Below, piece after piece: positions 14,826 to 60,172 of a stretch of DNA of 64,000 nucleotides. Positions within the stretch are counted from its first letter, which is position 1, and the number at the start of each line of letters is the position of its first letter. Source of the DNA: Parvimonas micra (lineage in GTDB: Bacteria; Bacillota; Clostridia; Tissierellales; Peptoniphilaceae); assembly GCF_900637905.1 (NCBI RefSeq), contig NZ_LR134472.1:1488001-1552000 (forward strand), in the 5' to 3' direction. The notes beneath the pieces are model-generated. The model ran no database searches. It saw only the letters and a program-made list of their open reading frames with translations, and was not told the origin of the DNA. The translations under genes were made by a program, and so were the position numbers.

Positions 14826-14826
14826 T

Positions 14827-36292: not shown

Positions 36293-37252
36293 TTGAAAAA
36301 AATCGCTATTCTTACAAGTGGAGGAGATTCTCCGGGAATGAATCCTGTAATAAGAGCTGTTGTAAGAACCTGTATTTATCATAATATTAGAATTTATGGA
36401 GTTAAGTTTGGTTATGATGGTCTTATAAAAGGAGACATCTTTGAAATGAATGTATCTAGTGTTGCAGATATAATTCAAAAAGGAGGAACTATATTAGGTA
36501 GTGCTAGGAGTAAAGAATTTATGACTAAAGATGGTCAGGAAAAAGCAGTTCAGAGTTTAAAAGATAATGGTATTGAAGGACTTGTAGTTTTAGGAGGAGA
36601 TGGTACTTTTCGTGGTGCTAATGTTTTAAGTAAATATGGAATAAAGACTATTGCTATACCTTGTACTATTGATAATGATATGGGATATACTGATTATACA
36701 ATTGGATTTTTCACTTCAGTAAATACAGTTATCGACGCTATTTCAAAACTTCGTGATACATCTTCTTCACATGGAAGAGCAAATATATTAGAAGTTATGG
36801 GACGAAAATGTGGAGATATCGCTCTAAATTCCGGATTGGCTGGTGGAGCTGAAAGTATAATAGTTCCGGAAGTCGATTTTGATATAGATAAAGTTTGCAA
36901 TAAAATTGTATCTGGTAGAAAAAGAGGTAAATTACACCATATAATAGTTTTAACTGAGGGGATTTTAAGTCCTTATGAACTTAAAAGACAGATTCAAGAA
37001 AAAACAAAGATTGATACAAGAGTAACTGTTCTTGGACATATCCAAAGAGGAGGAACCCCAAGTTCATTTGATAGAATTATTGCAAGCCAAATGGGAAGTA
37101 TGTCTGTTAAATTATTGTTGAAAGAACAAACTAATTTAGCTTTAGCTTTTAAAAATAATAATATTGAGTATATTACTATAGAAGATGCTGTATCTAGCAA
37201 AAAAATATTTAATAAAGATTTATATGATATAGTTGATGAACTATCTATTTAG
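36293..37252 (+). CDS. pfkA: 6-phosphofructokinase
   Basis: ATP-dependent phosphofructokinase of glycolysis, 319 residues. ATP loop [15 protein letters not shown], catalytic PCTIDND segment (Asp near 127), and [15 protein letters not shown] for substrate binding. TTG start 12 bp after dnaE with GGAGGG upstream. pyk follows after 9 bp, coupling the two control points of glycolysis. Confidence 0.96.
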
Positions 37253-37261
37253 GAGAGAATT

Positions 37262-39013
37262 ATGAAAAAAACAAAAATAATATGTACGATTGGACCTGCT
37301 TCAGATTCAGTCGAAAGTTTAAAAGAATTAATGCTTTGTGGAATGAATGTTTGTAGACTGAATTTTTCACATGGAAGCAAAGAAGAACATCAAGTTAGAA
37401 TTGATAATATAAAAAAAGCAAGAGAAGAATTAGATTTACCTATAGCAATAATGCTTGATACTAAAGGTCCAGAAATTAGGCTTGGGAAATTTAGTGTTGA
37501 TGAAGTTGCTTTAAAAGCAGGAGATACTTATACTTTTACAACTGAAGAAATTTTAGGAAATCAAGAAATTTGTTCCGTTTCGTATAAATTATTACCTAGT
37601 GATGTTAAAATTGGAGGAACAATTTTAGTAGATGACGGTTTGGTTGAAATGGAAGTTGTTTCTAAAACTGATAAAGAAATAAAATGCTTTGTAAAAAATA
37701 ATGGAATAATTAAGAGTAATAAAGGTGTAAATATACCGAATGAAATAATAAATTTACCTTCAATTACAGAAAAGGATAAATCAGATATTTTATTTGCAAT
37801 AAAGAATGATTTAGATTTTATTGCAGCATCTTTTGTTAGAAAACCTGAAGATGTATATGAAATTAGAAAAATTTTAGATGAAAATAATTCTGAAATCAAA
37901 ATCATATCTAAAATAGAAAATCAAGAGGGCGTTGAAAATATTGATAAAATTATAGAAGCTTCTGATGGAATAATGGTTGCTAGAGGAGACTTAGGAGTTG
38001 AAATTAAAGCAGAATTTATTCCAAAAATACAAAAAGAAATAATTAGAAAATGTAATTTAATAGGAAAACCGGTAATAACTGCAACACAAATGTTAGATTC
38101 TATGATTAGAAATCCAAGACCAACAAGAGCAGAAGTTACAGATGTAGCAAATGCAATTATTGATGGAAGTGATTGTGTTATGTTATCCGGTGAAACTGCT
38201 GCTGGAAAATATCCAAAGGAAGCGGTTAAAGTAATGAATAATATTGCAATAACAACAGAAAATTCTTTTGATTTTCAAAATAGTATAAAACATAAAAATA
38301 GAAATGATATTTTAAATACTATGAACTCAATAAGTTTATCTACAAAAGAAATTGCCGAAAATTTAAGAGCAAAAGCAATTATTTGTGCTACAGCTTCAGG
38401 AATTACACCAATATCAATTTCAAAATTTAGACCACTTGTTGATATTATTGCTGTTACGTATTCTGAAAAGGTTAGAAGAAAATTACAAATATTTTGGGGA
38501 GTTACTAGCTTAATTTCAAAAAAATCAGAACATACAGATGAAGTGATTGAACGTTCTATATCAGCAACATTAAATGCAAATTATATCAGCGATGGAGACA
38601 CTGTTGTTTTAACAGCAGGGATACCCGTCGGAGTTGCAGGCACAACGAATTTGATTAAGGTTCATACAGTTGGAAAAATTTTGATAAAAGGACTTGGAAT
38701 TGGGAAAGAATCAATTACCGGAAAAGTTTGTGTAATACATCGTGAAGAAGATTTAAAAAATAAATTTAAAGATGGAGATATTATTGTTTCTAAATTTACA
38801 GATAGAGAGTTTGTCGAATTTATTGATAGAGCATCAGGGATTATAGTTGAAACAGGAGGGTTGACTTCACATGCTGCAATAATTGCATTACATTTTGACA
38901 TTCCAACAATTATTGGCGCTGAAAATGCAACAAATATAATTAAAGATGGACAACTTGTAACAATAGATACTGTTGGTGGTTTAGTTTATGATGGAGATGT
39001 TAAGGTTCTTTAA
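37262..39013 (+). CDS. pyk: Pyruvate kinase with C-terminal PEP-utilizer domain
   Basis: Makes pyruvate and ATP from PEP. It has 583 residues: the barrel and B domain (KTKIICTIGPAS; LDTKGPEIRLG; MVARGDLGVEI; TATQMLDSM) and C domain to about 475, then an extra domain of about 105 residues like the phosphohistidine domain of PEP-utilizing enzymes, with the TSHAAI motif. This extension is known in Bacillus-type pyruvate kinases; phosphotransfer through it is not proven. No clear terminator follows; the polysaccharide promoter starts 2 bp after the stop. Confidence 0.96.
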   Translation: MKKTKIICTIGPASDSVESLKELMLCGMNVCRLNFSHGSKEEHQVRIDNIKKAREELDLPIAIMLDTKGPEIRLGKFSVDEVALKAGDTYTFTTEEILGNQEICSVSYKLLPSDVKIGGTILVDDGLVEMEVVSKTDKEIKCFVKNNGIIKSNKGVNIPNEIINLPSITEKDKSDILFAIKNDLDFIAASFVRKPEDVYEIRKILDENNSEIKIISKIENQEGVENIDKIIEASDGIMVARGDLGVEIKAEFIPKIQKEIIRKCNLIGKPVITATQMLDSMIRNPRPTRAEVTDVANAIIDGSDCVMLSGETAAGKYPKEAVKVMNNIAITTENSFDFQNSIKHKNRNDILNTMNSISLSTKEIAENLRAKAIICATASGITPISISKFRPLVDIIAVTYSEKVRRKLQIFWGVTSLISKKSEHTDEVIERSISATLNANYISDGDTVVLTAGIPVGVAGTTNLIKVHTVGKILIKGLGIGKESITGKVCVIHREEDLKNKFKDGDIIVSKFTDREFVEFIDRASGIIVETGGLTSHAAIIALHFDIPTIIGAENATNIIKDGQLVTIDTVGGLVYDGDVKVL

Positions 39014-39014
39014 T

Positions 39015-39043
39015 TTTACTTTATTTTAAATATATGTTATTAT
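39015..39043 (+). promoter_or_regulatory. Promoter of the polysaccharide operon
   Basis: TTTACT, 17 bp, TATTAT, 32 bp before the TTG start at 39075. Block 39013-39043 equals 13469-13499 at 29 of 31 positions. Confidence 0.7.
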
Positions 39044-39074
39044 ATTACAGACGTTTAAATAAGGAGAAAATATT

Positions 39075-39788
39075 TTGATAAAATATAAAGATTTACCTAA
39101 AGAGTTTCAAAATGAATCTGTAAAGAAGTATTATGAAATAGTTTCAAAAAAGAGGCTTAGTTTGGTTTTTAAAAGGATATTTGACATTATTTTTTCTGTC
39201 TTAACTTTAATAATTTTGCTTATTCCGATATTTATAATTTCTATTGCTATAAAATTGGATTCTAAAGGTAGTGTTTTTTATAGACAGGAAAGAGTTACAA
39301 GGTATGGTAAGAAATTTAAAATTTTTAAATTTAGAACAATGGTTTCAAACGCTGATAAAATCGGAACACTTGTAACTGTAAAATCAGATTCGAGGATAAC
39401 TAAAGTTGGAAAATTTTTGAGGAAATATAGATTAGATGAATTTCCACAAATTTTTAATATATTTTTAGGTGATATGAGTTTTGTAGGGACAAGACCTGAA
39501 GTTACAAAATATGTTGAAAGATATTCAGACTATATGTATGCGACTTTGTTATTGCCGGCAGGACTTACGTCATATTCCAGCATAAATTATAAAGATGAGG
39601 ACGAAATAATATCAAAGCACTTAGATGATAATATCAGTGTAGATGATATATATATAAAGTATATTTTACCTGATAAAATGAAATATAATATAGAATATAT
39701 TGAAAGATTTTCTTTTTGGTATGATATTAAAATTATGTTTAAAACATTTTTATCTGTATTTTTGGGAGGAAAAAATAATGAAGGTTAG
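39075..39788 (+). CDS. Initiating sugar-phosphate transferase
   Basis: Polyprenol-phosphate sugar-1-phosphate transferase that starts repeat-unit assembly on undecaprenyl phosphate. It has 237 residues. One membrane segment (about 35-57) precedes the catalytic domain: VFYRQERVTRYGKKFKIFKFRTM, then RKYRLDEFPQIFNIFLGDMSFVGTRPE. It is the short (PglC/EpsL) type without the extra N-terminal membrane region of WbaP. TTG start with AAGGAG upstream. First gene of the polysaccharide operon; its end overlaps the next gene. Confidence 0.9.
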   Translation: MIKYKDLPKEFQNESVKKYYEIVSKKRLSLVFKRIFDIIFSVLTLIILLIPIFIISIAIKLDSKGSVFYRQERVTRYGKKFKIFKFRTMVSNADKIGTLVTVKSDSRITKVGKFLRKYRLDEFPQIFNIFLGDMSFVGTRPEVTKYVERYSDYMYATLLLPAGLTSYSSINYKDEDEIISKHLDDNISVDDIYIKYILPDKMKYNIEYIERFSFWYDIKIMFKTFLSVFLGGKNNEG

Positions 39789-40779
39789 CATAGGAGTAGT
39801 TGCCTTGAATGAGGAAAAAACTTTACCTTCTCTTTTTGAAGATTTTAAATTACAGACATATCCACATGATGAAATTGAGATAATTTTAGTTGATGGCATT
39901 TCTACAGATAATACAAAGGAAATTATGCAGACTTTCAAAGACAATAATGATTTTTTAGAAGTAAAAATTTTAGATAATCCTAAAAAAATTCAATCTGCAG
40001 GTTGGAATATTGTAATAAAAAATTTTACGGGAGATGTTTTAGTAAGAATAGATGCACATTCTTCAATTCCAAGAGATTTTATAGAAAAAAATGTTAAGAA
40101 CATAAAATCTGGAGAAGATGTTTCAGGTGGTAAAAGGCCAAATATAATTGACGAAAATACTGCTTATAAAAGAATGCTTTTAGAAGCCGAATCTTCTATG
40201 TTTGGGAGTAGTATTGCACCTTTTAGAAATGCATCAGGAAAAAAATATGTTAAATCAATGTTTCATGCAATGTATAAAAGAGAAGTATTGGAAAAAGTTG
40301 GTTTTTTTAATGAAAAATTATTACGAACAGAAGATAATGAATTCCATTATAGAATCAGAAAAGCAGGATATAAACTTTGCTATAATGATAATATTGTTTC
40401 ATATCAACATACAAGGAATTCGCTTCTAAAAATGATTAAACAAAAGAAAGCTAATGGAATGTGGATAGGACTTACGACAGCTATTTGTCCTGAGTGTTTA
40501 AATTTATATCATTATGTTCCTTTTGCATTTTTAGTTGCACTTTTTATATCAATTATTTCATTATTTTTTACTAAATATTTATTTTTATTAGTATTTGGTT
40601 CATATCTTATAGTGAATATTTTGATGTCTTTAAGTTCAATTTTTAAAGGTAAATTTAATCCCTACAACTTATTGCTTCCAATTGTATTTTTTCTTTTACA
40701 TATTAGTTATGGATATGGTACATTGATAGGTTTTTTAAAAATCCCATCATTTTTAAAAACATATAATAAGGAGGACTAG
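39778..40779 (+). CDS. Membrane glycosyltransferase, GT2 family
   Basis: GT-A fold glycosyltransferase with a C-terminal membrane region, 333 residues. Domain start VSIGVVALNEEKTLPSLFEDF; metal-binding RIDAHSS; SGGKRPNI; TEDNEFHYRIRKAGYK. The last 90 residues hold three or four membrane helices, like ExoA-type transferases. ATG 39778 follows GGGAGG and overlaps the upstream gene by 11 bp; a longer frame back to 39700 lies entirely in that gene and is rejected. Sugar specificity unknown. Confidence 0.88.
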   Translation: MKVSIGVVALNEEKTLPSLFEDFKLQTYPHDEIEIILVDGISTDNTKEIMQTFKDNNDFLEVKILDNPKKIQSAGWNIVIKNFTGDVLVRIDAHSSIPRDFIEKNVKNIKSGEDVSGGKRPNIIDENTAYKRMLLEAESSMFGSSIAPFRNASGKKYVKSMFHAMYKREVLEKVGFFNEKLLRTEDNEFHYRIRKAGYKLCYNDNIVSYQHTRNSLLKMIKQKKANGMWIGLTTAICPECLNLYHYVPFAFLVALFISIISLFFTKYLFLLVFGSYLIVNILMSLSSIFKGKFNPYNLLLPIVFFLLHISYGYGTLIGFLKIPSFLKTYNKED

Positions 40780-40782
40780 ACT

Positions 40783-41490
40783 ATGATATATGCAGGTATT
40801 CTTGCTGGAGGAATAGGTAGTAGGATGAATATTTCCAATATTCCAAAACAATTTTTAAATATTGGAGATAAGCCTATTATAATTCATACTATTGAAAAGT
40901 TTTTATTATGTAACAAAATAGATAAAATTTATGTTGGGGTAAATCCCGATTGGAATTCTTATCTAGTTGATATAATTGACAAAGATTATAATTATTTGTC
41001 TGAAAGAATTGTTGTTGTAGATGGTGGAAAAGATAGAAATTCTACAATTTTAAATATTATTTCTTCTATTGAAGAAGACAACGGATTAACTGATGAGGAT
41101 ATTCTTATAACTCATGATGCTGTTAGACCATTTGTTTCAATTAAAATGATTGAAGAAAATATAGATAATTGTAAAAAATATAATATTATTGATACTGTAG
41201 TTCCAGCTTTTGATACTATAGTTTCTTCTGAAGATGGAAAGTTTATTTCATCAATACCAGATAGAAAAACAATGTTTCAAGGACAAACTCCTCAAACATT
41301 TAAAATTAATAAATTCATGGAATACTATAATAAATTATCAGAAGAAGAAAAGAACATTTTAACTGATGCTTGTAAAATATTTGTGTTAAATGGAGAAAAA
41401 GTATTTTTAGTTAATGGAGATTTTTCAAATATAAAAATTACTACTGTAACAGACTTAAAGATTGCTAAGGCAATGCTTATGGAGATTTAA
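40783..41490 (+). CDS. tarI: D-ribitol-5-phosphate cytidylyltransferase
   Basis: Makes CDP-ribitol from ribitol 5-phosphate and CTP. It has 235 residues of the IspD-like fold: GILAGGIGSRMNISNIPKQFL, ITHDAVRPFV, and SIPDRKTMFQGQTPQTF, the last being typical of TarI rather than IspD. A bona fide ispD is at 14139, and tarJ follows immediately, both supporting TarI. AAGGAGG upstream. Confidence 0.88.
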   Translation: MIYAGILAGGIGSRMNISNIPKQFLNIGDKPIIIHTIEKFLLCNKIDKIYVGVNPDWNSYLVDIIDKDYNYLSERIVVVDGGKDRNSTILNIISSIEEDNGLTDEDILITHDAVRPFVSIKMIEENIDNCKKYNIIDTVVPAFDTIVSSEDGKFISSIPDRKTMFQGQTPQTFKINKFMEYYNKLSEEEKNILTDACKIFVLNGEKVFLVNGDFSNIKITTVTDLKIAKAMLMEI

Positions 41491-41491
41491 G

Positions 41492-42511
41492 ATGATAAAT
41501 AGAATTTTTCAATTAATGAAACCGGGTTTTATCTCAGTTAAATATGTTGATGAGAGCTTTTTAGGAGATAAAGTCATTGTAAAACCACTATACGTATCTT
41601 TGTGTCATGCTGATCAAAGATATTATTTAGGAAAGAGAGATCCAAAAGTATTGGCAAAAAAATTACCGATGGCTCCAATTCATGAATCTTGTGGAGAGGT
41701 TGTTTTTGATCCTACAAATACTTTTAAAGTTGGAGATACAGTATCTATGATTCCAAATACTCCACCTTGTAATTTTGATGAAAGAATATATGAAAATTAT
41801 GTAAAAGGATCTTATTTTCTATCTAGTGGTCATGATGGTTTTATGAGGGAATTTGTCAAAATTGCTCCAGATAGGCTTGTTAAATTTAATGATATTGATT
41901 TATCGGTAGCATCTATTTTGGAGTTTATTTCGGTAGGCTTTCACGCTTATGACAGATTTATAAAAAATTCACTTGAAAACAAAGAAACAATAACTATTTT
42001 TGGAAACGGAAGTTTAGGATTCGTTATGGCTAATGTTTTAAAGTATAAGTTTTCTGATAGTAAAATAGTTGTTATTGGAAGAAACTTGGAAAAATTAAAA
42101 ATCTTTTCGTTCGTAGATGAAGTTTATTCAAGTGATGATATTCCTGAAGATTTTTCTACAGATCATGGATTTGAGTGTGCCGGAGGGCCGGGAAGTGAAG
42201 ATGCCATTAATAATATAATAAAATATATTAAGCCTCAAGGCTCAATTATGTTGATGGGTGTTAGCGAAAATAAAGTTGCAATTAATACTAGAGATATATT
42301 GGAGAAAGGACTAACATTAATTGGATGTTCCAGATCAGGAAGAGTTGATTTTCAAGAAGCAGTAAAAATGCTTGGAAATAAAAAAATCCAAAATAGATTT
42401 AAATCTATTGTGTTTGAAGATGACGAAATAAATAGTGTTGATGATATTCATAGATTTTTCAAAAATGACTTGAATACACCTTTTAAAACTGTTGCTAAAT
42501 GGAATATTTAA
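41492..42511 (+). CDS. tarJ: Ribulose-5-phosphate reductase
   Basis: Zinc-type medium-chain dehydrogenase that reduces ribulose 5-phosphate to ribitol 5-phosphate, feeding TarI. It has 339 residues. YVSLCHADQRYYLGKR carries the catalytic Cys; PMAPIHESCGEV follows; the nucleotide fold is TIFGNGSLGFVMANVL. ATG 41492 starts one base after the tarI stop, with GGAGA inside tarI. The usual four-Cys structural zinc loop is not evident, as in TarJ-like enzymes. Confidence 0.85.
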   Translation: MINRIFQLMKPGFISVKYVDESFLGDKVIVKPLYVSLCHADQRYYLGKRDPKVLAKKLPMAPIHESCGEVVFDPTNTFKVGDTVSMIPNTPPCNFDERIYENYVKGSYFLSSGHDGFMREFVKIAPDRLVKFNDIDLSVASILEFISVGFHAYDRFIKNSLENKETITIFGNGSLGFVMANVLKYKFSDSKIVVIGRNLEKLKIFSFVDEVYSSDDIPEDFSTDHGFECAGGPGSEDAINNIIKYIKPQGSIMLMGVSENKVAINTRDILEKGLTLIGCSRSGRVDFQEAVKMLGNKKIQNRFKSIVFEDDEINSVDDIHRFFKNDLNTPFKTVAKWNI

Positions 42512-42532
42512 TTAGTGGTTATGATATAAATT

Positions 42533-43378
42533 ATGGATGAAATAAATTTAAGAGAGTTACAACTTAAGAGTTTAGAAATTGGAAAATATTTTGTTTCATT
42601 TTGTGAAGAAAATAATTTGTTATGTTATCTTTGTGGTGGAGGAGCAATTGGTAGTTTAAGACATTCAGGATTTATTCCTTGGGATGATGATTTAGATTTT
42701 TTTATGCCTAGAGAAGATTATGAAAAATTAGCTTTGTTATGGAATGAAAAAGCTGATACTAAAAAATATTCACTTGTTAAGGCCAATAAAGATTTAGTTG
42801 ATCATAATCTTTTTATTACTATTAGAGATAATGAAACTACTGCTATTAAACCATATCAAAAAGGTTTAAATATAAGTCACGGAATAGCGCTTGATATTTT
42901 ACCTCTTGATGGTTGTCCAAGTGGGAAAATTAAGCGAAAATTTCAGATAATGTGGGGACTAATTTATTCTCTTTTTTGTGCTCAAGTTTTACCTGAAAAA
43001 CATGGTGGGCTAAAGAAAAAAGTTTCTAAGTTGTTATTATCAATTTTTAAATCTAAAAGAATTAGATATAAAATTTGGAAGTTTGCAGAAAAAAGAATGA
43101 CTAGGTATAAGATTAAAGATTCGGAATATATCACGGAACTTTGTTCCGGTCCGTATTATATGAAAAAGATATATAGAAAAGAGTGGTTTGTAGATAAGAA
43201 GTATTTTGACTTTGAAGATACAGGAATGCCAATTCCTATTGGATATGATGGATATTTAAAGACAGCATTTGGAGATTACATGAAATTGCCTCCAAAGGAA
43301 AAACAAGTACCACATCATGACTTACTTTTCTTAGATCTAAAAAACAGTTATACGAATTATGAAAATATTTGGAAATAA
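42533..43378 (+). CDS. LicD-family phosphotransferase
   Basis: Nucleotidyltransferase-fold enzyme of 281 residues. CYLCGGGAIGSLRHSGFIPWDDDLDFFMPREDYEKL contains the metal-binding DDDLD of LicD/fukutin proteins. LicD is classically a phosphocholine transferase, but no choline kinase or cytidylyltransferase for choline is here, while tarI and tarJ are directly upstream. Eukaryotic relatives FKTN and FKRP transfer ribitol phosphate from CDP-ribitol, so I infer ribitol-phosphate transfer to the polysaccharide. The ribosome site is weak (AGTGG). Confidence 0.8.
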   Translation: MDEINLRELQLKSLEIGKYFVSFCEENNLLCYLCGGGAIGSLRHSGFIPWDDDLDFFMPREDYEKLALLWNEKADTKKYSLVKANKDLVDHNLFITIRDNETTAIKPYQKGLNISHGIALDILPLDGCPSGKIKRKFQIMWGLIYSLFCAQVLPEKHGGLKKKVSKLLLSIFKSKRIRYKIWKFAEKRMTRYKIKDSEYITELCSGPYYMKKIYRKEWFVDKKYFDFEDTGMPIPIGYDGYLKTAFGDYMKLPPKEKQVPHHDLLFLDLKNSYTNYENIWK

Positions 43379-43387
43379 GGTGATTAT

Positions 43388-44487
43388 TTGAAAAAAACGA
43401 AAATATTATTTTTTTTATGGTCCTTTTCATTAGGAGGAGGAGCTGAAAAAATATTATCAACAATTGTAAATAATCTTGATAGCGAAAAATATGATATTGA
43501 TATATTGGAAATCGAGCATTTTGATAAAGGATATGAACCTGTTAATGATAATATAAGAATATTAAAATCGTGGCAAGATTATAGACAATCTAAGATAAAA
43601 AGAGCTATTTTATGGAGAATAAGAAAATTTTTTCCAAATTTAGTAAGAAAAATAATGGTTAAAGAAAAATATGATATTGAAATTTCATTTACTATAATTA
43701 ATCCGCCATTTGAATTTTCAAAAGATAAGAATGTAAAAAAAATTGCTTGGATTCATGGCAGTATTGAAGATTTTATGAAAGATTCTCAAAAGAGGAATAA
43801 TCATAAGAGATATTTAGAAAATGTTGATAAAATAATTTCTGTATCAGAAAAAACTAAAGAGTCCATAATTTCAATTTATCCGGAATACAAAGATAAAGTC
43901 TTGACAATTTATAATGGTTATGATTTTGAAAGTATTTTGGAAAAATCAAATGAGAGGACAGATATTAATATTGAAAAAAATTCGATTTGTGTAATTGGAA
44001 GAATTGAAAACTTAAAAGGTTCATTAGAAGTTTATGATACAATAAAAAATTACATAAAAATTTAAATAAAAAGTATCATTTATATTTTTTAGGTGCAGGA
44101 GAATTAGAGGCTCATATAAAAGAGCTTGTACAAAAAGATAATTTGGAAGAGTATGTTCATTTTTTAGGATATCAAAAGAATCCATATAAATATATAAAAA
44201 AAATGAATTTAATGTTTTCAATGTCTAAACAAGAGGGATTTTCCGGTGCTATTGTTGAAGGATTGGCTTTAGGAATTCCTTTCATTTCTACAGATGTTGG
44301 AGGAGTAAAGGAACTTTCAAACGACGGTAAATTCGGTAAAATTGTAAATTCTACTGATGATGCTTGTGAATGTATTGTTAATTATTTTGAAAATAATATG
44401 TCAGTAGATAAATCAGAAATGAAAAATTTTATAACTCAGTTTACGATTTCAGAACAAATGAAAAATATAAATGAAATATTAGAATAA
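43388..44487 (+). pseudogene. Glycosyltransferase, GT4 family, split by a frameshift
   Basis: The reading frame begins at TTG 43388 (GGTGA upstream) and stops at 44065 after 225 residues. The rest of the protein continues in another frame, traceable from about 44044 to 44487 (KKYHLYFLGAGELEAH, then EGFSGAIVEGLALGIPFISTDVGGVKEL, the GT4 donor site). The shift falls in the six-A run 44044-44049; one extra A restores a continuous protein of about 366 residues, normal for GT4. N-terminal acceptor domain: LGGGAEKILSTIVNNL. Either sequencing error, recent mutation or slippage switching. Neighbours on both sides are intact. Confidence 0.85.
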
Positions 44488-44500
44488 TGGAGATAATTAT

Positions 44501-45982
44501 ATGAATATTACTTTTAGAAAATTTTATTCTTTAATTACCGCATTCTCTTTTATTTTTACTCTGTTACTTGGAGTAAGTTATTTATACACAGATAGATTGG
44601 ATATATTACTTTTTACATTGTTGTCTTTTTTTGTCAACTTAATATTGTTTTGTTTTACAGATATAAAATATTATATAATACATTTATTTTTTTATATAAC
44701 TATTTTTATATTTCTAGTTTCAAGGCCTACGATAGATTACTTGAGAAGTTATAGTTTTAATACTTATCAAAAAGATGCATATGTTTTTGCGTTTGTTATA
44801 GTTATGATTTCACTTTTAGGATTGTTTATTGGAGGAATAATTTCAAAAGCATTATTAAAAATAAAAAACAAAAAGAGGTTAGATGTAGATAGTAATGATA
44901 AGTTAAAAAGCTCTATATGGCTAAAAAATATAAGAATAGTTTCTCTTACTGTATATATATTGACATATCCATTTTATGCTTTAAGACTGATTGAAAGATT
45001 AATATTTAAATTAAATACATCTTATTATATTTATTATGCGTCTTTCAAAAGTAATTTGCCTTACTTCACGTATATATTATCAGTTTTTACAGTATATTCG
45101 ATGTGTGTATATTTAGCATCTAAACCAAATAAAAGAAATGCTACTATAGTTCTGGTAAGTAACCTATTTGCAAATGCAATATATTTATTTATTGGGACCA
45201 GAAATCCATTTATTTTAAGCTTAATATTTTCTTTTATATATTATTTTATAAGGGGACAAGAAGATATTAAAAATAAATGGATAGGAGTTAAAGAAAAAAT
45301 ACTAATTTTTACAAGTCTTCCTATAATAATTGTAGGAATGGGACTTTTAAACTATGTCAGAGACAATGTTGAAGTTTCTAATTTTAAAATATTTGATATA
45401 TTTATAGATTTTATCTATAAACAGGGAACAAGTTTTGGTGTTTTAGCTAAAGGATTTTTGTATAACAGTAATATTGCAGTAAGAAGTTTTACAAATTTTA
45501 CCTTTGGACCTATTGTTGAGTATTTTACTCATGGGAATTTTGGTAAGTTATTATTTGATACAAAACCATTTACAGCTACAACAAACAGCATTGAGTTGGC
45601 AATAAAAAGTAATAGCTATGCACATAATCTTTCTTATATAGCGATGAAAGGTGATTATTTGCAAGGACATGGTTTAGGAAGTAGTTTTATAATGGAAAAT
45701 TTTACAGATTACGGATATTTGGGTGTATTCTTATTTAGTGTTGCTTTAGGATTTTTATTTATAAGAATGTTAAATGTTTCTTACAGAAATAAAATTTTAC
45801 CTTTCGTTTGCACGTTAATAATATTAAATAATTTGTTTTTTATGCCTAGAAGTAGTTTTTCAGAAAGTTTTTCAATATTACTTACATTCCAATTTTGGTT
45901 TATAATTATATTAATTTTTGTAGTGGCAAAATTAATATCAAAAGAAAATTCTTATACAATTTTTAAAATAAAGGAGATATGA
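44501..45982 (+). CDS. Wzy-like oligosaccharide repeat-unit polymerase
   Basis: Very hydrophobic membrane protein, 493 residues, about 12 membrane segments with one larger loop (about 340-385). The fold and the segment FIGTRNPFILSLIFSFIYYFIRG fit O-antigen/capsule polymerases that join repeat units at the outer face of the membrane. Sequence divergence is usual in this family, so the call rests on topology and context. GGAG upstream; Wzz-like gene follows after 1 bp. Confidence 0.75.
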   Translation: MNITFRKFYSLITAFSFIFTLLLGVSYLYTDRLDILLFTLLSFFVNLILFCFTDIKYYIIHLFFYITIFIFLVSRPTIDYLRSYSFNTYQKDAYVFAFVIVMISLLGLFIGGIISKALLKIKNKKRLDVDSNDKLKSSIWLKNIRIVSLTVYILTYPFYALRLIERLIFKLNTSYYIYYASFKSNLPYFTYILSVFTVYSMCVYLASKPNKRNATIVLVSNLFANAIYLFIGTRNPFILSLIFSFIYYFIRGQEDIKNKWIGVKEKILIFTSLPIIIVGMGLLNYVRDNVEVSNFKIFDIFIDFIYKQGTSFGVLAKGFLYNSNIAVRSFTNFTFGPIVEYFTHGNFGKLLFDTKPFTATTNSIELAIKSNSYAHNLSYIAMKGDYLQGHGLGSSFIMENFTDYGYLGVFLFSVALGFLFIRMLNVSYRNKILPFVCTLIILNNLFFMPRSSFSESFSILLTFQFWFIIILIFVVAKLISKENSYTIFKIKEI

Positions 45983-45983
45983 T

Positions 45984-47018
45984 ATGTTTGAAAATTACTC
46001 ATTTGGAGATTTATTATCCAATATATATAAAAAGAGAATTTTAAATTTAATAGCATTTTTGCTGTTGAGTATTGCTTTGGTTTGTCCGTTGGTTTTACAA
46101 ACAATAAATAAAAAAACTATAACAAAAGAAGGGGTGCAATATTCAACTTATGTTGCTTATAAAATAACAGCTCCTGAGAGTGATAATATAAATGCGTTAT
46201 ATAGTAGAAGAGGCTATTCGGATTTTTATGAAAAGTTACTAGTATCTAATCTAAATGGTGCTTATTTATTTAATGATGTAAGCGATAAAGATTTGTCAAA
46301 AATGGCTAAAGAATTGGATACATCGGCTGTTACTTTGAAAAATTCTAATGCTGATTATTGGGATAAGAAAGTAGTGGTAAATTATATTTCTACTAATTTA
46401 GGGGTTTCTGCTAAAATTTTAACTCCAAGTAAAGCTGTAAATGATGTTATTGAAAAGAAATTTGATGAATTAATAAATAAGTATAAATCCGTTTATAAAA
46501 ATGTTACTATTGAAAAAGTTGAATCAAATTATTCTAAAGAATTAAGCTCTAAAGAAAATGTTAATACAGGATATAGTATGAAAAAATTGTTAGTAAAAGT
46601 ATTTGCTATCGAAGTGGCTCTAATAATTTTAGTTGCTATTATGAATTTTGTTATGTACATTTTTAATCCTACAATTAATAGAGAAGGAGATTACAGAAAA
46701 TACAATATAAAATTTGTTCAGGAAATAAAAAATAATAATGATTTACTTGAAGTTTTGAAATATAAAATTAATAATGAAAATATTGAAGAATTAAGTATAC
46801 TTAGTTCAAATTCAAAAATTATTGATAAATTAAATGATTTGAATATTGATAAAGTGAATATAGTGAAAACAAATGACTTAAGTAATATAATGAATTTAAA
46901 AAATGTTATATTAGTTGAAGAGTATGGAATTACAAGATATTCAGCTTTTGAAAAATTATTGCAAAATATAAAAAATTATGAGAAAAATATAATTGGAGTA
47001 TTATCATATAAATTATAA
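45984..47018 (+). CDS. Wzz-like chain-length protein with decayed kinase domain
   Basis: 344 residues. Two membrane segments (about 20-37 and 210-228) flank an extracellular region, the Wzz/CapA layout. The cytoplasmic C-terminal part (about 235-344) has the alternating strands and final NIIGVLSYKL of BY-type tyrosine kinases (CpsD/CapB) but no Walker A lysine motif or Tyr cluster, so I read it as a non-catalytic remnant. Last gene of the polysaccharide operon, GGAG upstream, terminator at 47032. No separate kinase or phosphatase gene is in the cluster. Confidence 0.7.
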   Translation: MFENYSFGDLLSNIYKKRILNLIAFLLLSIALVCPLVLQTINKKTITKEGVQYSTYVAYKITAPESDNINALYSRRGYSDFYEKLLVSNLNGAYLFNDVSDKDLSKMAKELDTSAVTLKNSNADYWDKKVVVNYISTNLGVSAKILTPSKAVNDVIEKKFDELINKYKSVYKNVTIEKVESNYSKELSSKENVNTGYSMKKLLVKVFAIEVALIILVAIMNFVMYIFNPTINREGDYRKYNIKFVQEIKNNNDLLEVLKYKINNENIEELSILSSNSKIIDKLNDLNIDKVNIVKTNDLSNIMNLKNVILVEEYGITRYSAFEKLLQNIKNYEKNIIGVLSYKL

Positions 47019-47031
47019 TTTTAAAAAAACT

Positions 47032-47066
47032 AAACCGGCTAATGTTAGCCGGTTTTGATTTTTTTA
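47032..47066. terminator. Bidirectional terminator of polysaccharide operon and yedF
   Basis: AAACCGGCTAA, 2-nt gap, TTAGCCGGTTTT plus T-run; on the minus strand the same stem is followed by T-rich sequence. It reaches the end of the convergent yedF. Confidence 0.85.
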
Positions 47067-47663
47067 GATATTAATTACTTTTCCTGCATTGAATAATGTT
47101 TCGTATATTGAATACATATTACTTATTTCACCAACTAAAAGTTTTTCTTTAAGTTTAAAATAGTCTAGACAAGTTCCGCAAGAAATAATTTCTACTCCTT
47201 TTTCTTGAAGTTTCTTTAAGTCATCAATACAAGGTGATCCTTCACAAGTTAGTTTTACACCTGAATTAAAAAATACTAGTGTTTTTGGCAATTTTTCGTA
47301 TTCACTTGAAGTATAAACAAAGCCTTTGATTAACAATTTTCCAAGTTCTTCAGAGCCGTTTCCCATAAAGTTCTTAGAAATAGCTATTACTGTATCTGAT
47401 GAGTTTTCAACAGAACAAAAGGCACTTGGTTCTTTTAGAGAAGTTTCGTTATTTTTTGATACAAACACATTAAATTCATTATCAGATATTTTCTCAAATT
47501 TAAAATCCAGATTGCTACTTTTAGCAAATTTCTCTAAGTTTTTTACTGCAGTATCATTGTCAACTATAACTAAAAAATCTTTTTCTTCTGAACTTTCAAC
47601 AGCTCTTTTAGTTAAAATCAATGGTTGAGGGCAAGCTAAACCTTTAGCATTTATTTCTTTCAT
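47064..47663 (-). CDS. yedF: YedF-type sulfurtransferase-like protein
   Basis: 199 residues, linked in many bacteria to selenium metabolism. The N-terminal TusA/SirA-like domain carries KGLACPQPL (Cys11); the C-terminal DsrE-like part ends with EIISCGTCLDYFKLKEKLLVGEISNMY, the typical YedF signature. ATG at 47663 after GGAGGT. Together with the GrdX-like gene it hints at selenoenzymes in this organism, though no sel or grd gene lies in the window. Confidence 0.88.
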   Translation of the reverse strand: MKEINAKGLACPQPLILTKRAVESSEEKDFLVIVDNDTAVKNLEKFAKSSNLDFKFEKISDNEFNVFVSKNNETSLKEPSAFCSVENSSDTVIAISKNFMGNGSEELGKLLIKGFVYTSSEYEKLPKTLVFFNSGVKLTCEGSPCIDDLKKLQEKGVEIISCGTCLDYFKLKEKLLVGEISNMYSIYETLFNAGKVINI

Positions 47664-47690
47664 AATTTACCTCCAAAAAAATTAATTTAT

Positions 47691-47716
47691 ACAATATAAT
47701 TATACAATATAAAAAT
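47691..47716 (-). promoter_or_regulatory. Repeated -10-like elements upstream of yedF
   Basis: On the minus strand the block ATATTGTATAA occurs twice, 13-14 bp apart, each with a TATAA core; no convincing -35 is seen. The rest of the 47664-47837 gap is AT-rich without ORFs. Confidence 0.35.
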
Positions 47717-47837
47717 TATTAATACAAGTAAAATAGTTTATATTTTTGTATGCAATATCATGTATGAATTTTTAGTGTACAAATCAATATTAAAATTTAA
47801 ATAAAGTTAAAAATCATATTTAATTTTTATAAAAATA

Positions 47838-47866
47838 TTGTTTAAATTTTCTATATAGGGTATAAT
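47838..47866 (+). promoter_or_regulatory. Promoter of DnaJ-like gene
   Basis: TTGTTT, 17 bp, TATAAT, 41 bp before the ATG at 47907. Confidence 0.7.
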
Positions 47867-47875
47867 AAAATTAAA

Positions 47876-47892
47876 GGTCAAAGAAAGTCAAA
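47876..47892 (+). promoter_or_regulatory. CtsR-type heptad operator
   Basis: GGTCAAA, GAA, AGTCAAA: the direct heptad repeat with 3-bp spacing bound by the heat-shock repressor CtsR. It begins 10 bp after the -10 box, where it would block transcription start, and ends just before the AAGGAGG ribosome site. Confidence 0.75.
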
Positions 47893-47906
47893 ACAAGGAG
47901 GAATTT

Positions 47907-48833
47907 ATGGAATATAAAGATTATTATAAAATTTTAGGCGTCGATAAGAACGCGACTGATGCAGAGATAAAAAAAGAATATAGAAAGTTGGCAAAAAAAT
48001 ATCATCCTGATGTTAATCAAAATAATGAAGCTGCAAGTAATAAATTTAAAGAAATAAATGAAGCTTATGAAGTTTTGTCTGATAAAGAAAAAAGAAAACA
48101 ATATGATATGTTCGGATCAAATTATAATTTTAGTGGTGGAGATAATTTTGACCCAAGAAATTATGGTTTTAGTGCTTCCTATAGTGGAAGTGATATGGGT
48201 GGTTTTTCTGACTTCTTTAATATGTTTTTTGGTGGAAGTGGAAAAACTTCATCACATTTTAGCGGATTTTCAGGATTTGATGGTTTTACAAATTCAAATG
48301 CATATTCTGGAAATTCTTACTCAGGATTTGGAAGACAACCTCAAAGACAAAAATATGAAACTAGCTTGAATTTATCTGTTAAAGAAGCATATTCCGGAAT
48401 AGAGCGAGTACTTTACGTCAATATAAATAATTCTCCTAAAAAAATAACTGTTAAGATACCTAGAGGAATTACAACAGGTAAAAAGGTAAAAGTCAATGGA
48501 GATAAGTATAAGCTTGATGGTGATATATATGTAAAAATAAATGTTATAAATGATGAATATAGACTTGAAGGTTTAGACTTAATAAAGACAGTTAGTTTAT
48601 ATCCATGGGAAGCATATTTTGGAGTTACAAAGGTTATTGAAACTTTAAACGGAAATGTTAGAGTTAAGATTCCTGCAAAGATAGAAAGTATGAAAAAAAT
48701 AAGAATTTCAAACAAGGGATATACTGATTTAAAAGGAAAAACAGGAGATTTATATCTTGAAATAGTTATAAATAACCCTAAAAACTTATCAGGTGAAAAA
48801 TTAGAATTATATAAAAAATTAATGGAAAAATAA
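47907..48833 (+). CDS. DnaJ-class cochaperone without zinc finger (CbpA-like)
   Basis: Hsp40 cochaperone of 308 residues: J domain 1-70 with HPD at 33-35, a Gly/Ser/Phe-rich linker (about 72-150), then two beta-rich substrate domains (about 155-300). The Cys-rich zinc region of true DnaJ is missing, so it is a class II (CbpA/DjlA-independent) type. ATG after AAGGAGG. The CtsR-type operator and the neighbouring clpB place it in the heat-shock response. Confidence 0.9.
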
Positions 48834-54309: not shown

Positions 54310-57240
54310 TTGAAAAGATTCAAAAAAATTTCAAAATTTATTTTATCTTTTATGATTATGCTTAATATGTTGTTTGTTTTTTTTATAGATATAACATTTT
54401 CTTATAAAAATGATTTCATTTCTCATAAACAAGAACAAAATGAAATAACTAGGCAAACAGATATTACTTCTTCATCAGGAATAATTAAAGAAAATATTCA
54501 GATGAAAAACAAAGATAAAATAAATGAAGATAAATTGAAAAACGAAACTAAAGAAGAATGTACTTTAGTAAATAATCTTGAACCTAAACTTAAGAAAGAA
54601 TTTAAGCAAAAACTTAGGTCAGGATCTACAACGCCAATATCCGGAACTAGCACAATTGCTGCAAATGAGATAGCACCTGCAAATTATCTTCAAATAATAG
54701 ATAGAATTGCAGGAGCAAAAGTGGAGATTTTAGAAACAGGACCTGGAGTTAATGCAACTAAAAGTTTAAATCCATGGGGGGTTGCTAACGATTTATGGAG
54801 TGGTAAATTTAATGATACTATATTTAATAAGCTCTCTGGTAACGGATATGGCGGATATACAATTCAGTTTAAACCATCAAATACCAGTGCTTATGGATAT
54901 ACTACAGATCCTAAGGCGGGTTGGGATAACTCTGATTTAAATTTGAGTACGAGTTCAATGTGGGTTAAAATTAAATATACAAATGCTGCCTATTATGATG
55001 GAGAACTTGTAGATGCAATAGCAGTAATAAAAATAACTCCATTTAAGAATAGAACGGAAGGAGCTTCATGGAGTAATGGAGATTATACTAATAATACTTA
55101 TTATCCACTTGTCCAAATTAGCGACCTTTTGTACAGAGGTTGGAACTGGCAGAACGTAAATGAGATAAATATTGATTTACAACTTTTTAAAAAAGGTTCA
55201 TCTTCACCTATTCAATTTAGTGAAGGTAATTTTGGAGATATGGAGGCAACATATTATACCATAAATTCGCTTAATCCTACTTCTATACAAGGTGAAGGAG
55301 AAAATCCTGCTGCAACATATGGACCAGAATATGTTCTTCCTAAAAAGGGTACTTACAGTGGAGCTTATGTTATACCTGGTAGTCATATAGTAACTTCGTA
55401 TGGTGGAGATACAAGTATGGGTACACAATATGCTTATAATGGGGGAAGTTCATATTGGGATGGTGATGATCCAAGTCATCATAATTGGTCTCAGAATTCT
55501 GTTTTATTTACAACCAAGGCTACTACTCATTTAAATTTCACTATGGGAAACTTGTCAAGAGATCCTCAGCAACAATCTGTAAAGAGGACAAATTTTGTTT
55601 GGACTTCAATAAGTACACAGTCATTTACAAATTCTTATGTTAAGTATATTGATATACCTGTTGAAAAGAAATGGCAAGGACCTGGAGCCGGAGATGATGT
55701 ATCAACAGTTACAGTTAAACTATATGCAAAATACAAACTTAATTACCAAGACAAAGAGTACGAATTTAGGAATCTTACACTTACAAAAGATTCAAATGGA
55801 AATTGGAAAGGAAAATTTATAGGAGTTCCTGATTTACCATCTTTAAAAAAATTACTTGAAAAACACCATAAAGGTGGGACTATTACTGATCAAACTTATA
55901 TAGTTAAAGAAGTATATCTTGATGGTAAAGAAATAACAAATACTGATTATGAAAGTACTATTAACGGAAATATGAATTCAGGGTTTGTAATAAATAATAA
56001 AAGAGTAAAAAATGGTCTTACTGTTATAAAAAATTGGCAAGATCAAAATGGAAATCAAATAACTGGTAATGATACTTCAAAATTTCCGGAGGTTAAAGTT
56101 CTTTTAAAAAGGAAAATAAAGACCGGTAATTATTCATGGATAGAAGACTCTTCCTTTAGTAAAGAAGTTTCTCTTAATTACGATGGTAATTGGAAAAATG
56201 TAATAAATGGACTTGATATAAAAGATAGTCAAAATAGAGAATATGTATATTATATTATTGAACAAAATATTCCTAAAGGATTCAGAATTGTAAGTTATAA
56301 ACCAAGTAGTAGTTCTAATCCTCTTGTATGCACAGGTATAGAGATAGGAAATAAGACTACCGATGAAAATAAGCTTGAAGTTACGAATGCAAAAGATTTA
56401 GCAGATGTAAATATAGAAAAAGTTTGGCTTGATGTAAATGGAGTTCAGATGCCTTTTAATCAGACAAGCAATTTTGGAAATATAAAAGTTAATTTATATC
56501 GTAAGGTAGGAAACATTAAAGATGATAACTTTGTCAAGGAAGTTACTTTAAGTTATACAAAAAATTGGAAAGAAAAAGTAACAGAACTTTCAGTTCATAA
56601 TTCTGATGGAGAATTATATAACTATTATATAGAAGAAGACGCAACTACTTTACCTGATGGATTTTCTATAAAAGGATATACTCCTACTTCAGGAATAAAT
56701 TTGTCTCAGGATAGTACGAATAATATTTTGAAAGTTGAAAATATAAGAGATAAAGTTGACATACCTATTGAGAAAATATGGTATGATGTAAAAGGTAATA
56801 AAATAACAACAGAAGGTCCTCCAAATCTGGTAGTAAAACTTTATAGAACAACAGATGGAACTACAAAAAATGGAGAACTTGTTCAAATAGAAGGAAAAAA
56901 CGAAGTACTTCTCACTTATAATCAAGGAGCTTGGAGTTATAAATATAAAAATTTACCTATAAAAGATAATAATGGTAAATATTACACTTATTATATTCAA
57001 GAAGTCAAACCTAGCGGTTATCTTGAAATAGGAAGTATAGAAGAAAGAAGTATTACTTTTAAGCAAAATGATAATACAATAAAAACATTAACACTAAAGA
57101 ACAAACTTAATCCTGTTTATCCAGCAACAGGAGGAAATGGTTCTAAAGTTTATTTAACTGTTGGAATTACTGCAGTAGCATTCGGAATACTACTGCGTGA
57201 AATAATTCAAAATAAAAAAGAAAGAAGGAAAAACGCGTGA
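54310..57240 (+). CDS. Cell-wall-anchored adhesin with four CnaB domains
   Basis: Surface protein of 976 residues, probably the pilus tip. A signal peptide (about 1-30) precedes a charged linker, a large N-terminal domain (about 110-440) without von Willebrand A motifs, and four CnaB-like domains at about 450-560, 568-690, 700-810 and 817-932 (openings VEKKWQG, VIKNWQDQ, IEKVWLD, IEKIWYD). The sorting signal is YPATG at 937-941 with a hydrophobic helix and basic tail; Tyr replaces the usual Leu. TTG start after GAGGTGA. Its stop overlaps the pilin GTG by four bases. Confidence 0.88.
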   Translation: MKRFKKISKFILSFMIMLNMLFVFFIDITFSYKNDFISHKQEQNEITRQTDITSSSGIIKENIQMKNKDKINEDKLKNETKEECTLVNNLEPKLKKEFKQKLRSGSTTPISGTSTIAANEIAPANYLQIIDRIAGAKVEILETGPGVNATKSLNPWGVANDLWSGKFNDTIFNKLSGNGYGGYTIQFKPSNTSAYGYTTDPKAGWDNSDLNLSTSSMWVKIKYTNAAYYDGELVDAIAVIKITPFKNRTEGASWSNGDYTNNTYYPLVQISDLLYRGWNWQNVNEINIDLQLFKKGSSSPIQFSEGNFGDMEATYYTINSLNPTSIQGEGENPAATYGPEYVLPKKGTYSGAYVIPGSHIVTSYGGDTSMGTQYAYNGGSSYWDGDDPSHHNWSQNSVLFTTKATTHLNFTMGNLSRDPQQQSVKRTNFVWTSISTQSFTNSYVKYIDIPVEKKWQGPGAGDDVSTVTVKLYAKYKLNYQDKEYEFRNLTLTKDSNGNWKGKFIGVPDLPSLKKLLEKHHKGGTITDQTYIVKEVYLDGKEITNTDYESTINGNMNSGFVINNKRVKNGLTVIKNWQDQNGNQITGNDTSKFPEVKVLLKRKIKTGNYSWIEDSSFSKEVSLNYDGNWKNVINGLDIKDSQNREYVYYIIEQNIPKGFRIVSYKPSSSSNPLVCTGIEIGNKTTDENKLEVTNAKDLADVNIEKVWLDVNGVQMPFNQTSNFGNIKVNLYRKVGNIKDDNFVKEVTLSYTKNWKEKVTELSVHNSDGELYNYYIEEDATTLPDGFSIKGYTPTSGINLSQDSTNNILKVENIRDKVDIPIEKIWYDVKGNKITTEGPPNLVVKLYRTTDGTTKNGELVQIEGKNEVLLTYNQGAWSYKYKNLPIKDNNGKYYTYYIQEVKPSGYLEIGSIEERSITFKQNDNTIKTLTLKNKLNPVYPATGGNGSKVYLTVGITAVAFGILLREIIQNKKERRKNA

Positions 57241-59228: not shown

Positions 59229-59281
59229 AAAAATAAAGGGAGAAATATAAAAATTTGAATCCCTTAGAAAGGAGAGGCATT

Positions 59282-60145
59282 ATGAAAAAAACAATAAAAG
59301 GCTTATGGCTTATTATGATATTTGTTATGACATTTTTCATAGTGCCCACTGCCTTTGCAGATGAGAACTTCATAACTATTGAATATTATGAAAAATTAGA
59401 AAACGCAGAAAGTGGAAAAGACAGAATTCCAATAAAAGATTGTGTTTTTGGTATTATTAGAGTATCTGAAGATTTAAGTATTGAAAAAGCAAAACAGGAA
59501 GAGCTTTTGAAATCACTTTCTAGCAAAAACCTTAAAACTATTGAAGAAGAATACTCAAAAGTTGGTAAGCTTATAGAATTGAAGCCTACAGATAAAAATG
59601 GAAAAACAAAAATAGATGTAAATGAAAAAGGTATTTATTATGTTTTTGAACTTAGCAAGAAAGATGGAACAAATGAAATTGGAAAAAATACTGTTCCGTT
59701 TTTGGTAATTGTTGGGACAGGAAAAAATTATACTATATATCCTAAACATATTCCTTCTAAAGAAACGGTAGAACTTTCCGTAAAAAAGGTTTGGGAAGGG
59801 ACTAAGTTGGATGAGGTTGAGATAAAGCTTCTTGCAAATGGGGAAGAAACAGATGCGGTTTTTCTTAATGATAATAACAATTGGAAATATACTTTTAAAG
59901 GACTTGCTAAAAATGATAAAAATGGCAAGTTAATAGATTATAGTGTACGAGAAGTTGTTCCTAAAGGTTATATCGCTAAGGTAGAAAAGGATGATAGAGA
60001 AAATAGTTTTGTAATTACGAATAAAAAAACACCATCTAAAATTATACAAACCGGAGATATTTCTCATCTGTATTTTATAGGAAGTGCGTGCATTTTAATA
60101 GCCATGGGTTATACAATATATAAAAAAGGGAATAAAAACACATAA
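59282..60145 (+). CDS. Minor pilin, cell-wall base subunit
   Basis: Small pilus subunit of 287 residues: signal peptide ending near AFADEN, an N-terminal domain (to about 155), one CnaB domain (about 162-250; SVKKVWEG opening), then sorting signal IIQTG at 254-258, hydrophobic helix and KKGNKNT tail. Size and final position among the structural genes suggest the base subunit that anchors pili to the wall. ATG 59282 follows AAGGAGAGG; an in-frame upstream ATG at 59255 precedes that box. A weak hairpin (AAGGGA/TCCCTT, 59236-59265) lies in front. Confidence 0.85.
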   Translation: MKKTIKGLWLIMIFVMTFFIVPTAFADENFITIEYYEKLENAESGKDRIPIKDCVFGIIRVSEDLSIEKAKQEELLKSLSSKNLKTIEEEYSKVGKLIELKPTDKNGKTKIDVNEKGIYYVFELSKKDGTNEIGKNTVPFLVIVGTGKNYTIYPKHIPSKETVELSVKKVWEGTKLDEVEIKLLANGEETDAVFLNDNNNWKYTFKGLAKNDKNGKLIDYSVREVVPKGYIAKVEKDDRENSFVITNKKTPSKIIQTGDISHLYFIGSACILIAMGYTIYKKGNKNT

Positions 60146-60160: not shown

Positions 60161-60172
60161 AATTTTTAAAAG

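What the first reader, a model, noticed from the sequence alone, without database searches (positions are those of the whole stretch)
40783..43378. LicD-family enzyme as a candidate ribitol-phosphate transferase
tarI and tarJ make CDP-ribitol, and the next gene is LicD-family with DDDLD. No choline genes are present. The related human proteins FKTN and FKRP use CDP-ribitol, so this triad may decorate the polysaccharide with ribitol phosphate without TagF/TarL-type polymerases.
Basis: partly seen in the sequence, partly recalled or inferred. Interest (0 to 1): 0.55.

Follow-up and report, generated by a model that had tools for sequence, protein, structure and literature searches.

The report
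Pneumococcus-type teichoic acid cluster in Parvimonas

Summary
The three genes are real: tarI 40783-41490, tarJ 41492-42511, licD 42533-43378. The LicD is the ortholog of pneumococcal LicD3, already proposed in print as the ribitol-phosphate transferase of teichoic acid (60.6% identity, against about 28% to pneumococcal LicD1 and LicD2). Its operon continues, as in pneumococcus, with a GT4, a TarP-like Wzy polymerase and TarQ. "No choline genes" is true of the window only: about 350 kb away the chromosome carries LicD1, LicD2, a TacF flippase and a LicC-LicA fusion. In one relative a GT2 and licD1-licD2 follow tarQ directly. So ribitol phosphate is probably an in-line backbone unit of a TarP-polymerised teichoic acid, not a side decoration. 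Eight Clostridia genomes carry licD3 near tarIJ with no LicA/LicC match, and in six it is the only LicD found; this favours CDP-ribitol over CDP-choline as donor. In the window strain the GT4 frame is split. New member of a known kind; enzyme activity and polymer are untested.

The parts
39075..39788 (+). Initiating polyprenyl-phosphate sugar-phosphate transferase (Bac_transf), first gene of the cluster
   Evidence: PF02397 204.9 bits; present in the window and the five other Parvimonas genomes compared
39775..40779 (+). GT2 glycosyltransferase, probably adds the second sugar
   Evidence: PF00535 93.3 bits; role inferred from position
40783..41490 (+). TarI, D-ribitol-5-phosphate cytidylyltransferase (makes CDP-ribitol)
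   Evidence: NF001183 343.8 bits, cut-off 166; 2vsh E 8e-89
41492..42511 (+). TarJ, ribulose-5-phosphate reductase (makes ribitol-5-phosphate)
   Evidence: 6xh9 E 2.8e-98
42533..43378 (+). LicD3, proposed ribitol-phosphate transferase using CDP-ribitol
   Evidence: PF04991 170.2 bits; 60.6% identity to S. pneumoniae LicD3; group of 19 at 100/100; FKRP fold, Z 15.2
42632..42643 (+). LicD3-class loop C-G-G-G (residues 34-37), where LicD1/2 have [NS]-Y-G-[TS]
   Evidence: the hG[GS] motif of FKRP is described in passages of PMC6965139
42683..42697 (+). DDDLD, presumed metal-binding aspartates (residues 51-55)
   Evidence: D51, D52, D53 and D55 conserved across the LicD groups compared
43388..44487 (+). 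GT4 glycosyltransferase (position of pneumococcal Spr1224), split into two frames in this strain
   Evidence: pieces at 43388-44065 and 44143-44487; PF13439 and PF13692; uninterrupted 366-369 aa in four relatives, also split in the frame-broken assembly G595
44501..45982 (+). TarP-like Wzy polymerase
   Evidence: PF14296 405.2 bits; TIGR04370 183.7 bits; 56% to the S. pneumoniae gene in the same place
45984..47018 (+). TarQ, Wzz-like partner of TarP
   Evidence: NF052598 teichoic_TarQ 484 bits, cut-off 350; 46% to S. pneumoniae TarQ

Best explanation
The locus is the ribitol half of a pneumococcus-type (type IV) teichoic acid pathway in a Parvimonas species. TarJ reduces ribulose-5-phosphate to ribitol-5-phosphate and TarI activates it to CDP-ribitol. 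The LicD is LicD3: an NTase-fold, metal-dependent phosphotransferase that moves ribitol-5-phosphate from CDP-ribitol onto the second sugar of an undecaprenyl-linked repeat unit, forming a phosphodiester inside the backbone. Two glycosyltransferases (the GT4 here and a GT2 at the distant locus) then add amino sugars, LicD1 and LicD2 put phosphocholine on them from CDP-choline made by the LicC-LicA fusion, the TacF homolog flips the unit, and TarP with TarQ polymerises it. Shown: gene content, orthology, operon order, predicted fold. Inferred: every reaction, the sugar identities and the acceptor.
For: Orthology: the window LicD is 60.6% identical to S. pneumoniae LicD3 over 274 aa, but 28.7% and 27.8% to the other two LicDs of that genome. 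In a tree of 57 chosen LicDs, 19 LicD3s linked to tarIJ or tarPQ form one side of a branch at 100/100 and 12 LicD1/2s another at 100/100. Order: S. pneumoniae has licD3-GT4-GT2-tarP-tarQ, the window licD3-GT4-tarP-tarQ. The choline set is elsewhere in the genome: LicD1, LicD2, TacF (9xzn, E 1.5e-107), LicC and LicA domains (1jyk E 2.6e-38, 4r77 E 2.3e-31). In relative G182 tarQ is followed by the GT2, licD1 and licD2, which ties the halves together. Donor: 8 of 8 Clostridia genomes with licD3 by or near tarIJ gave no LicC-LicA match, and in 6 of 8 it is the only LicD match. Loop C-G-G-[GC] in 19 of 19 LicD3s against [NS]-Y-G-[TS] in 12 of 12 LicD1/2s, like the hG[GS] of FKRP. An aminotransferase, GalU and a PglF-like dehydratase are adjacent at L232, fit for an AATGal-type precursor.
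Against: No enzyme assay or polymer structure for this genus; in the passages I read, the LicD3 role in streptococci is assigned from genomes and polymer structure, not from a donor assay. FKRP resemblance does not fix the donor, since the phosphocholine transferase mf1 also resembles FKRP best. Ten of 26 other LicDs also have glycine at loop position 35. The GT4 is split in this strain, so the full repeat unit may not be made. Choline-binding repeats were not found in this genome or in G595 (no match), though 4 of 6 Parvimonas genomes have them. Of the 8 Clostridia genomes 7 are MAGs of unstated completeness. LicB was not searched.
Confidence: 0.85

Rival explanations
1. One reading: a choline-free triad that adds ribitol phosphate as a side decoration to a capsule-like polysaccharide.
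For: tarI-tarJ-licD are contiguous and no choline gene was found in the window ORFs scanned. Clostridia genomes with licD3 by tarIJ and no LicA/LicC match suggest that a choline-free form exists elsewhere.
Against: This genome has the choline set. TarQ passes its curated cut-off and the operon matches pneumococcus, where ribitol phosphate is in the backbone (passage of PMC12017771).
Confidence: 0.06
2. The LicD is a third phosphocholine (or phosphoethanolamine) transferase fed by the LicC-LicA fusion, and tarIJ serve another transferase.
For: The LicD family is best known for phosphocholine transfer (general knowledge); the genome can make CDP-choline; the only NCBIfam hit of the LicD is to a cholinephosphotransferase, 57.4 bits, far under its cut-off of 225.
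Against: Separate group from LicD1/2, a different loop in 19 of 19, orthologs in 8 genomes without LicA/LicC matches, and within 150 bases of tarI or tarJ in 11 of the 15 TarI loci that hold it.
Confidence: 0.05
3. A pathway remnant, compatible with the LicD3 identity: this strain no longer makes the full polymer because the GT4 is split.
For: GT4 in two frames; no choline-binding repeats found in this genome.
Against: The other cluster genes are open; the GT4 differs from an intact allele by one mismatch and one single-nucleotide length difference at a 7-base homopolymer, so the change is recent, switchable or an assembly error.
Confidence: 0.2

Closest known systems
S. pneumoniae LicD3 (Spr1225 / SPD_1201) and the licD3-spr1224-spr1223-tarP-tarQ operon
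   Same: LicD3 60.6% identical; GT4, TarP and TarQ in the same order
   Different: In Parvimonas tarI and tarJ head the operon; in the S. pneumoniae draft genome they are on another contig with licA and licC (L098). In the window genome the GT2 and licD1-licD2-tacF are at a second locus, and LicC and LicA are fused.
Gemella sanguinis teichoic acid cluster
   Same: LicD3, GT4, GT2, TarP, TarQ, LicD1, LicD2, TacF, TarI, TarJ, a LicC-LicA fusion and an initiating transferase within 18 kb (L198)
   Different: All in one cluster; tarIJ and licD3 are not adjacent
tarI-tarJ-licD3 clusters of Clostridia (L111, L113, L124, L138, L139, L142, L143, L146)
   Same: LicD3 orthologs (52-63%) next to tarIJ in seven and about 2 kb away in L146
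   Different: No LicC-LicA match; no TarQ over its cut-off, weak partial matches in 3 of 8
Human FKRP (ribitol-phosphate transferase)
   Same: NTase/LicD fold, Z 15.2, rmsd 3.2 over 170 residues; GG loop and acidic metal site
   Different: 19% identity over the aligned part, FKRP residues 310-485, so the stem domain and most of the zinc-finger loop of FKRP have no counterpart in the alignment; FKRP acts on a protein glycan
TagF/TarL-type polymerases (PF04464)
   Same: CDP-polyol donor (general knowledge)
   Different: Different family; none among the 45 window ORFs scanned; genome-wide not tested

Membership tests
LicD3 (pneumococcal-type ribitol-phosphate transferase) | PF04991 domain over its cut-off | tested here: met
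   170.2 bits against 22.6
LicD3 (pneumococcal-type ribitol-phosphate transferase) | Groups with S. pneumoniae LicD3, not LicD1/2 | tested here: met
   19-row group at 100/100; 60.6% against 27.8-28.7%
LicD3 (pneumococcal-type ribitol-phosphate transferase) | Synteny with GT, tarP and tarQ | tested here: met
   cluster found in the window and five other Parvimonas genomes, one of them a frame-broken assembly
LicD3 (pneumococcal-type ribitol-phosphate transferase) | Uses CDP-ribitol | not testable with these tools
   needs an assay
Pneumococcus-type teichoic acid pathway | TarI and TarJ | tested here: met
Pneumococcus-type teichoic acid pathway | TarP and TarQ | tested here: met
   TarQ NF052598 484 bits, cut-off 350; TarP-like by PF14296 and by synteny
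Pneumococcus-type teichoic acid pathway | LicA, LicC, LicD1, LicD2 and TacF | tested here: met
Pneumococcus-type teichoic acid pathway | Choline transporter LicB | not tested
   no search for LicB was run
Pneumococcus-type teichoic acid pathway | AATGal precursor enzymes | tested here: inconclusive
   PglF-like dehydratase, DegT aminotransferase and GalU adjacent; product and stereochemistry unknown
Pneumococcus-type teichoic acid pathway | Both GalNAc transferases intact | tested here: not met
   GT4 split in the window strain, intact in four relatives; GT2 open at L005:11000
Pneumococcus-type teichoic acid pathway | Polymer contains ribitol and phosphocholine | not testable with these tools
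   needs chemistry
LicD1/LicD2 phosphocholine transferases | Position in the LicD1/2 group and its Y-G loop | tested here: not met
TagF/TarL polymerase | PF04464 domain in the LicD protein | tested here: not met
   the window LicD matches only PF04991

The most novel reading that the evidence does not exclude
LicD3 is a stand-alone class of bacterial ribitol-phosphate transferase, older and wider than the choline pathway. Clostridia use tarI-tarJ-licD3 in choline-free polymers, and the pneumococcal-type teichoic acid arose when a choline module (licD1, licD2, tacF, licC-licA) was joined to it and shared among oral Streptococcus, Gemella and Parvimonas.
Probability: 0.45. Interest if true: 0.55.

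Novelty: new member of a known kind. Interest (0 to 1): 0.4.

Why it matters
It extends a cell-wall pathway described for mitis-group streptococci and Gemella to an anaerobe of another class. If the polymer is made, Parvimonas would carry phosphocholine on its surface, which would bear on phosphocholine-based tests, on choline-binding proteins and on host responses known for pneumococcus. The Clostridia orthologs without detectable choline genes offer a clean way to test what separates ribitol from choline transfer in the LicD family, which includes human disease proteins.

Tried and rejected
Fold comparison as a donor test: rejected, because FKRP is also the closest structural match reported for the phosphocholine transferase mf1 (passages of PMC11982090).

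Choline-binding repeats as a functional marker: 3 of 6 Parvimonas genomes by PF01473, 4 of 6 by PF19127, but none in the window's own genome or in G595, so it supports the genus, not the strain.

PF02719 as a marker of AATGal synthesis: rings in 14 of 14 control genomes, not discriminating; replaced by the neighbourhood at L232.

A first ORF extraction for the tree took only one strand and lost 31 of 57 loci; it was redone and only the second was used. The 57 LicDs are a chosen set: some matches were left out (further Parvimonas copies, short or partial matches, and matches for which no locus was returned). The two groups scored on the tree were named after seeing the blastp identities, so the tree confirms the split but is not an independent prediction of it.

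TarI as an ordinary IspD: rejected. LicD3 in the phylum sample: 20 of 398 genomes match the LicD3 profile at E 0.001 or better, and outside the window gene none scores above 146.2 bits, so no LicD3 ortholog was seen in that sample.

Full report
Observation. ORFs at 40783-41490, 41492-42511 and 42533-43378 (the TarJ ORF is listed from 41462, and 41492 is the likelier start) are TarI, TarJ and a LicD protein. The window also has a separate IspD beside an IspF gene at 14109-15300, so TarI is not the cell's isoprenoid enzyme.

Surroundings. The genes lie in an eight-gene run: initiating sugar-phosphate transferase, GT2, tarI, tarJ, licD, GT4, a Wzy polymerase and TarQ. TarQ passes the curated NCBIfam cut-off (484 bits against 350). 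TarP and TarQ are the pneumococcal proteins assigned to polymerisation of teichoic acid precursors (abstract and passages of PMC5448163). By gene number the pneumococcal order is LicD3 (Spr1225), Spr1224, Spr1223, TarP (Spr1222) (passages of PMC4649388, and PMC12017771); my map of S. pneumoniae SMRU824 shows licD3-GT4-GT2-tarP-tarQ (L192), the window's order with one extra GT2.

Organism. TarQ was found in 4 of 199 genomes of the order, all of this genus and counting the window's own, and in 1 of 398 of the phylum, the window's own. The cluster is in the window genome and in all five other Parvimonas genomes compared; one of them, G595, is a frame-broken assembly.

Choline genes. The genome has four LicD genes. 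Two lie in tandem at L005:11977 and 12796 with a GT2 upstream and, downstream, a flippase that matches the solved teichoic acid flippase 9xzn (E 1.5e-107) and a 601-residue protein with LicC- and LicA-like domains (1jyk E 2.6e-38, 4r77 E 2.3e-31). All 6 Parvimonas genomes have a match to that fusion, near full length in 4 (the G594 copy shows one internal stop). In G182 tarQ is followed by the GT2, licD1 and licD2 (L033), which ties the two loci together. The fourth LicD (L006:8961-9851, minus strand) is of unknown role.

Which LicD is it? By blastp the window LicD is 52.3-63.5% identical to 14 LicD3 proteins outside Parvimonas and at most 33.3% to the 38 LicDs outside the LicD3 group (57 sequences with the query). 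The tree puts the 19 LicD3s on one side of a branch at 100/100 and the 12 LicD1/2s on another at 100/100. The program flagged long branches, none in these two groups, and odd letter make-up in five rows, two of them in the groups (L156, L015).

Donor. The TarI scan matched 431 stretches, 355 of them relatives, and kept the best 80. Of the 80 loci, 15 hold a LicD3-type gene (at least 50% identity over 250 residues), 3 of them in Parvimonas or its sister; in 11 of the 15 it lies within 150 bases of tarI or tarJ. Of the other 65 loci, 58 hold a LicA/LicC-type match, nearly all streptococci, and 7 do not; in the two streptococcal genomes searched whole, licD3 lies with tarPQ on another contig. I then searched 15 chosen genomes of these 80. 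LicC-LicA matches were clear in 6 (S. pneumoniae, S. oralis, three Gemella, Abiotrophia), marginal in one (S. marimammalium, E 9.4e-4, short) and absent in the 8 Clostridia with licD3. The search finds relatives of 28-35% identity, so it is fairly sensitive. In 6 of the 8 the LicD3 is the only LicD match. A LicD with tarIJ next door and no sign of a CDP-choline supply is best explained by CDP-ribitol. MAG incompleteness weakens this; one of the 8, Lachnoclostridium An169, is not labelled a MAG.

Structure. The AlphaFold2 model (mean pLDDT 92.3, pTM 0.91) matches FKRP best: all 13 Foldseek matches with E up to 0.001 are FKRP chains and VIA-align gives Z 15.2, rmsd 3.2 over 170 residues, with the next family at 9.8. 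Sequence alone gives FKRP at E 0.0022. FKRP has an hG[GS] motif and catalytic aspartates (passages of PMC6965139); the choline transferase mf1 and its relatives are said to lack hG[GS] (passages of PMC11982090). All 19 LicD3s have C-G-G-[GC] there and all 12 LicD1/2s [NS]-Y-G-[TS]; 10 of 26 other LicDs also carry glycine at position 35, so the loop is suggestive, not diagnostic.

Sugars. A DegT-type aminotransferase, GalU-like protein and a PglF-like UDP-GlcNAc 4,6-dehydratase (best solved relative WlaL, 5bju, which I recall as PglF) are adjacent at L232:4695-8601, fit to supply a 4-amino-4,6-dideoxy sugar and UDP-glucose. The link to this cluster is inferred.

Strain caveat. GT4 is in two frames at 43388-44065 and 44143-44487. 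Against an almost identical allele in G187 there is one mismatch and one single-nucleotide length difference at a 7-base homopolymer. It may be switching, recent loss or an assembly error.

Known or new. Pneumococcal and S. oralis LicD3 are already said to insert ribitol phosphate (PMC4649388 passages; the review it cites, Denapaite 2012, was not held, and is known to me only by citation). Gemella is reported to hold the choline teichoic acid genes, and Parvimonas is named there as sharing surface determinants in an oral gene pool (PMC7136413, passages and section 15). The listings of my searches 'Parvimonas micra + phosphorylcholine' (6 papers), 'Parvimonas, teichoic acid, choline-binding, any two' (15 of 189 listed) and 'Parvimonas + licD' (1 paper) showed no paper that describes this pathway in Parvimonas; apart from parts of PMC7136413 I did not open those papers for it, and the library lacks most subscription journals. 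So: a new member of a known kind, with a broader evolutionary reading left open.

Noticed in passing
window 54310-62730: Sortase-assembled pilus cluster: Cna_B/LPXTG protein, pilin backbone, a second Cna_B protein and three sortases in a row.
   Followed up: no
window 43388-44487: GT4 gene split into two frames by a one-nucleotide difference at a 7-base homopolymer; intact copies exist in four relatives.
   Followed up: partly
window 36500-48430 against L034: DNA identity to Parvimonas G187 is a mosaic: 86.6-94.4% over 36.5-40.5 kb, 98.4-100% over 43.5-47.0 kb and 99.8-100% from 47.5 kb on, with lower and higher blocks between, which suggests recombination of the polymerase end of the cluster between lineages.
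   Followed up: partly
L005:15226-17031: LicC and LicA fused in one 601-residue protein with an N-terminal winged-helix domain; also in Gemella sanguinis and G. bergeri, and in S. oralis G608 as a second copy with one internal stop.
   Followed up: partly
G000 whole genome: No choline-binding repeats found by PF01473 or PF19127, although 4 of 6 Parvimonas genomes have them.
   Followed up: partly
L006:8961-9851: A fourth LicD, outside the LicD3 and LicD1/2 groups, next to an MFS/Atg22-like transporter gene; role unknown.
   Followed up: partly
L071 / L199 (Abiotrophia defectiva, G597) and L077 (Gemella haemolysans, G599): Have LicD3, TarIJ and LicA/LicC matches but no TarQ match, so another polymerisation partner may be used there.
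   Followed up: no
L120 (S. marimammalium) and L140 (S. gallolyticus): tarIJ lies in capsule-like clusters with LicD proteins only 31-34% like those of the window genome; those of S. marimammalium fall outside the LicD3 group. Possible independent ribitol LicDs.
   Followed up: no
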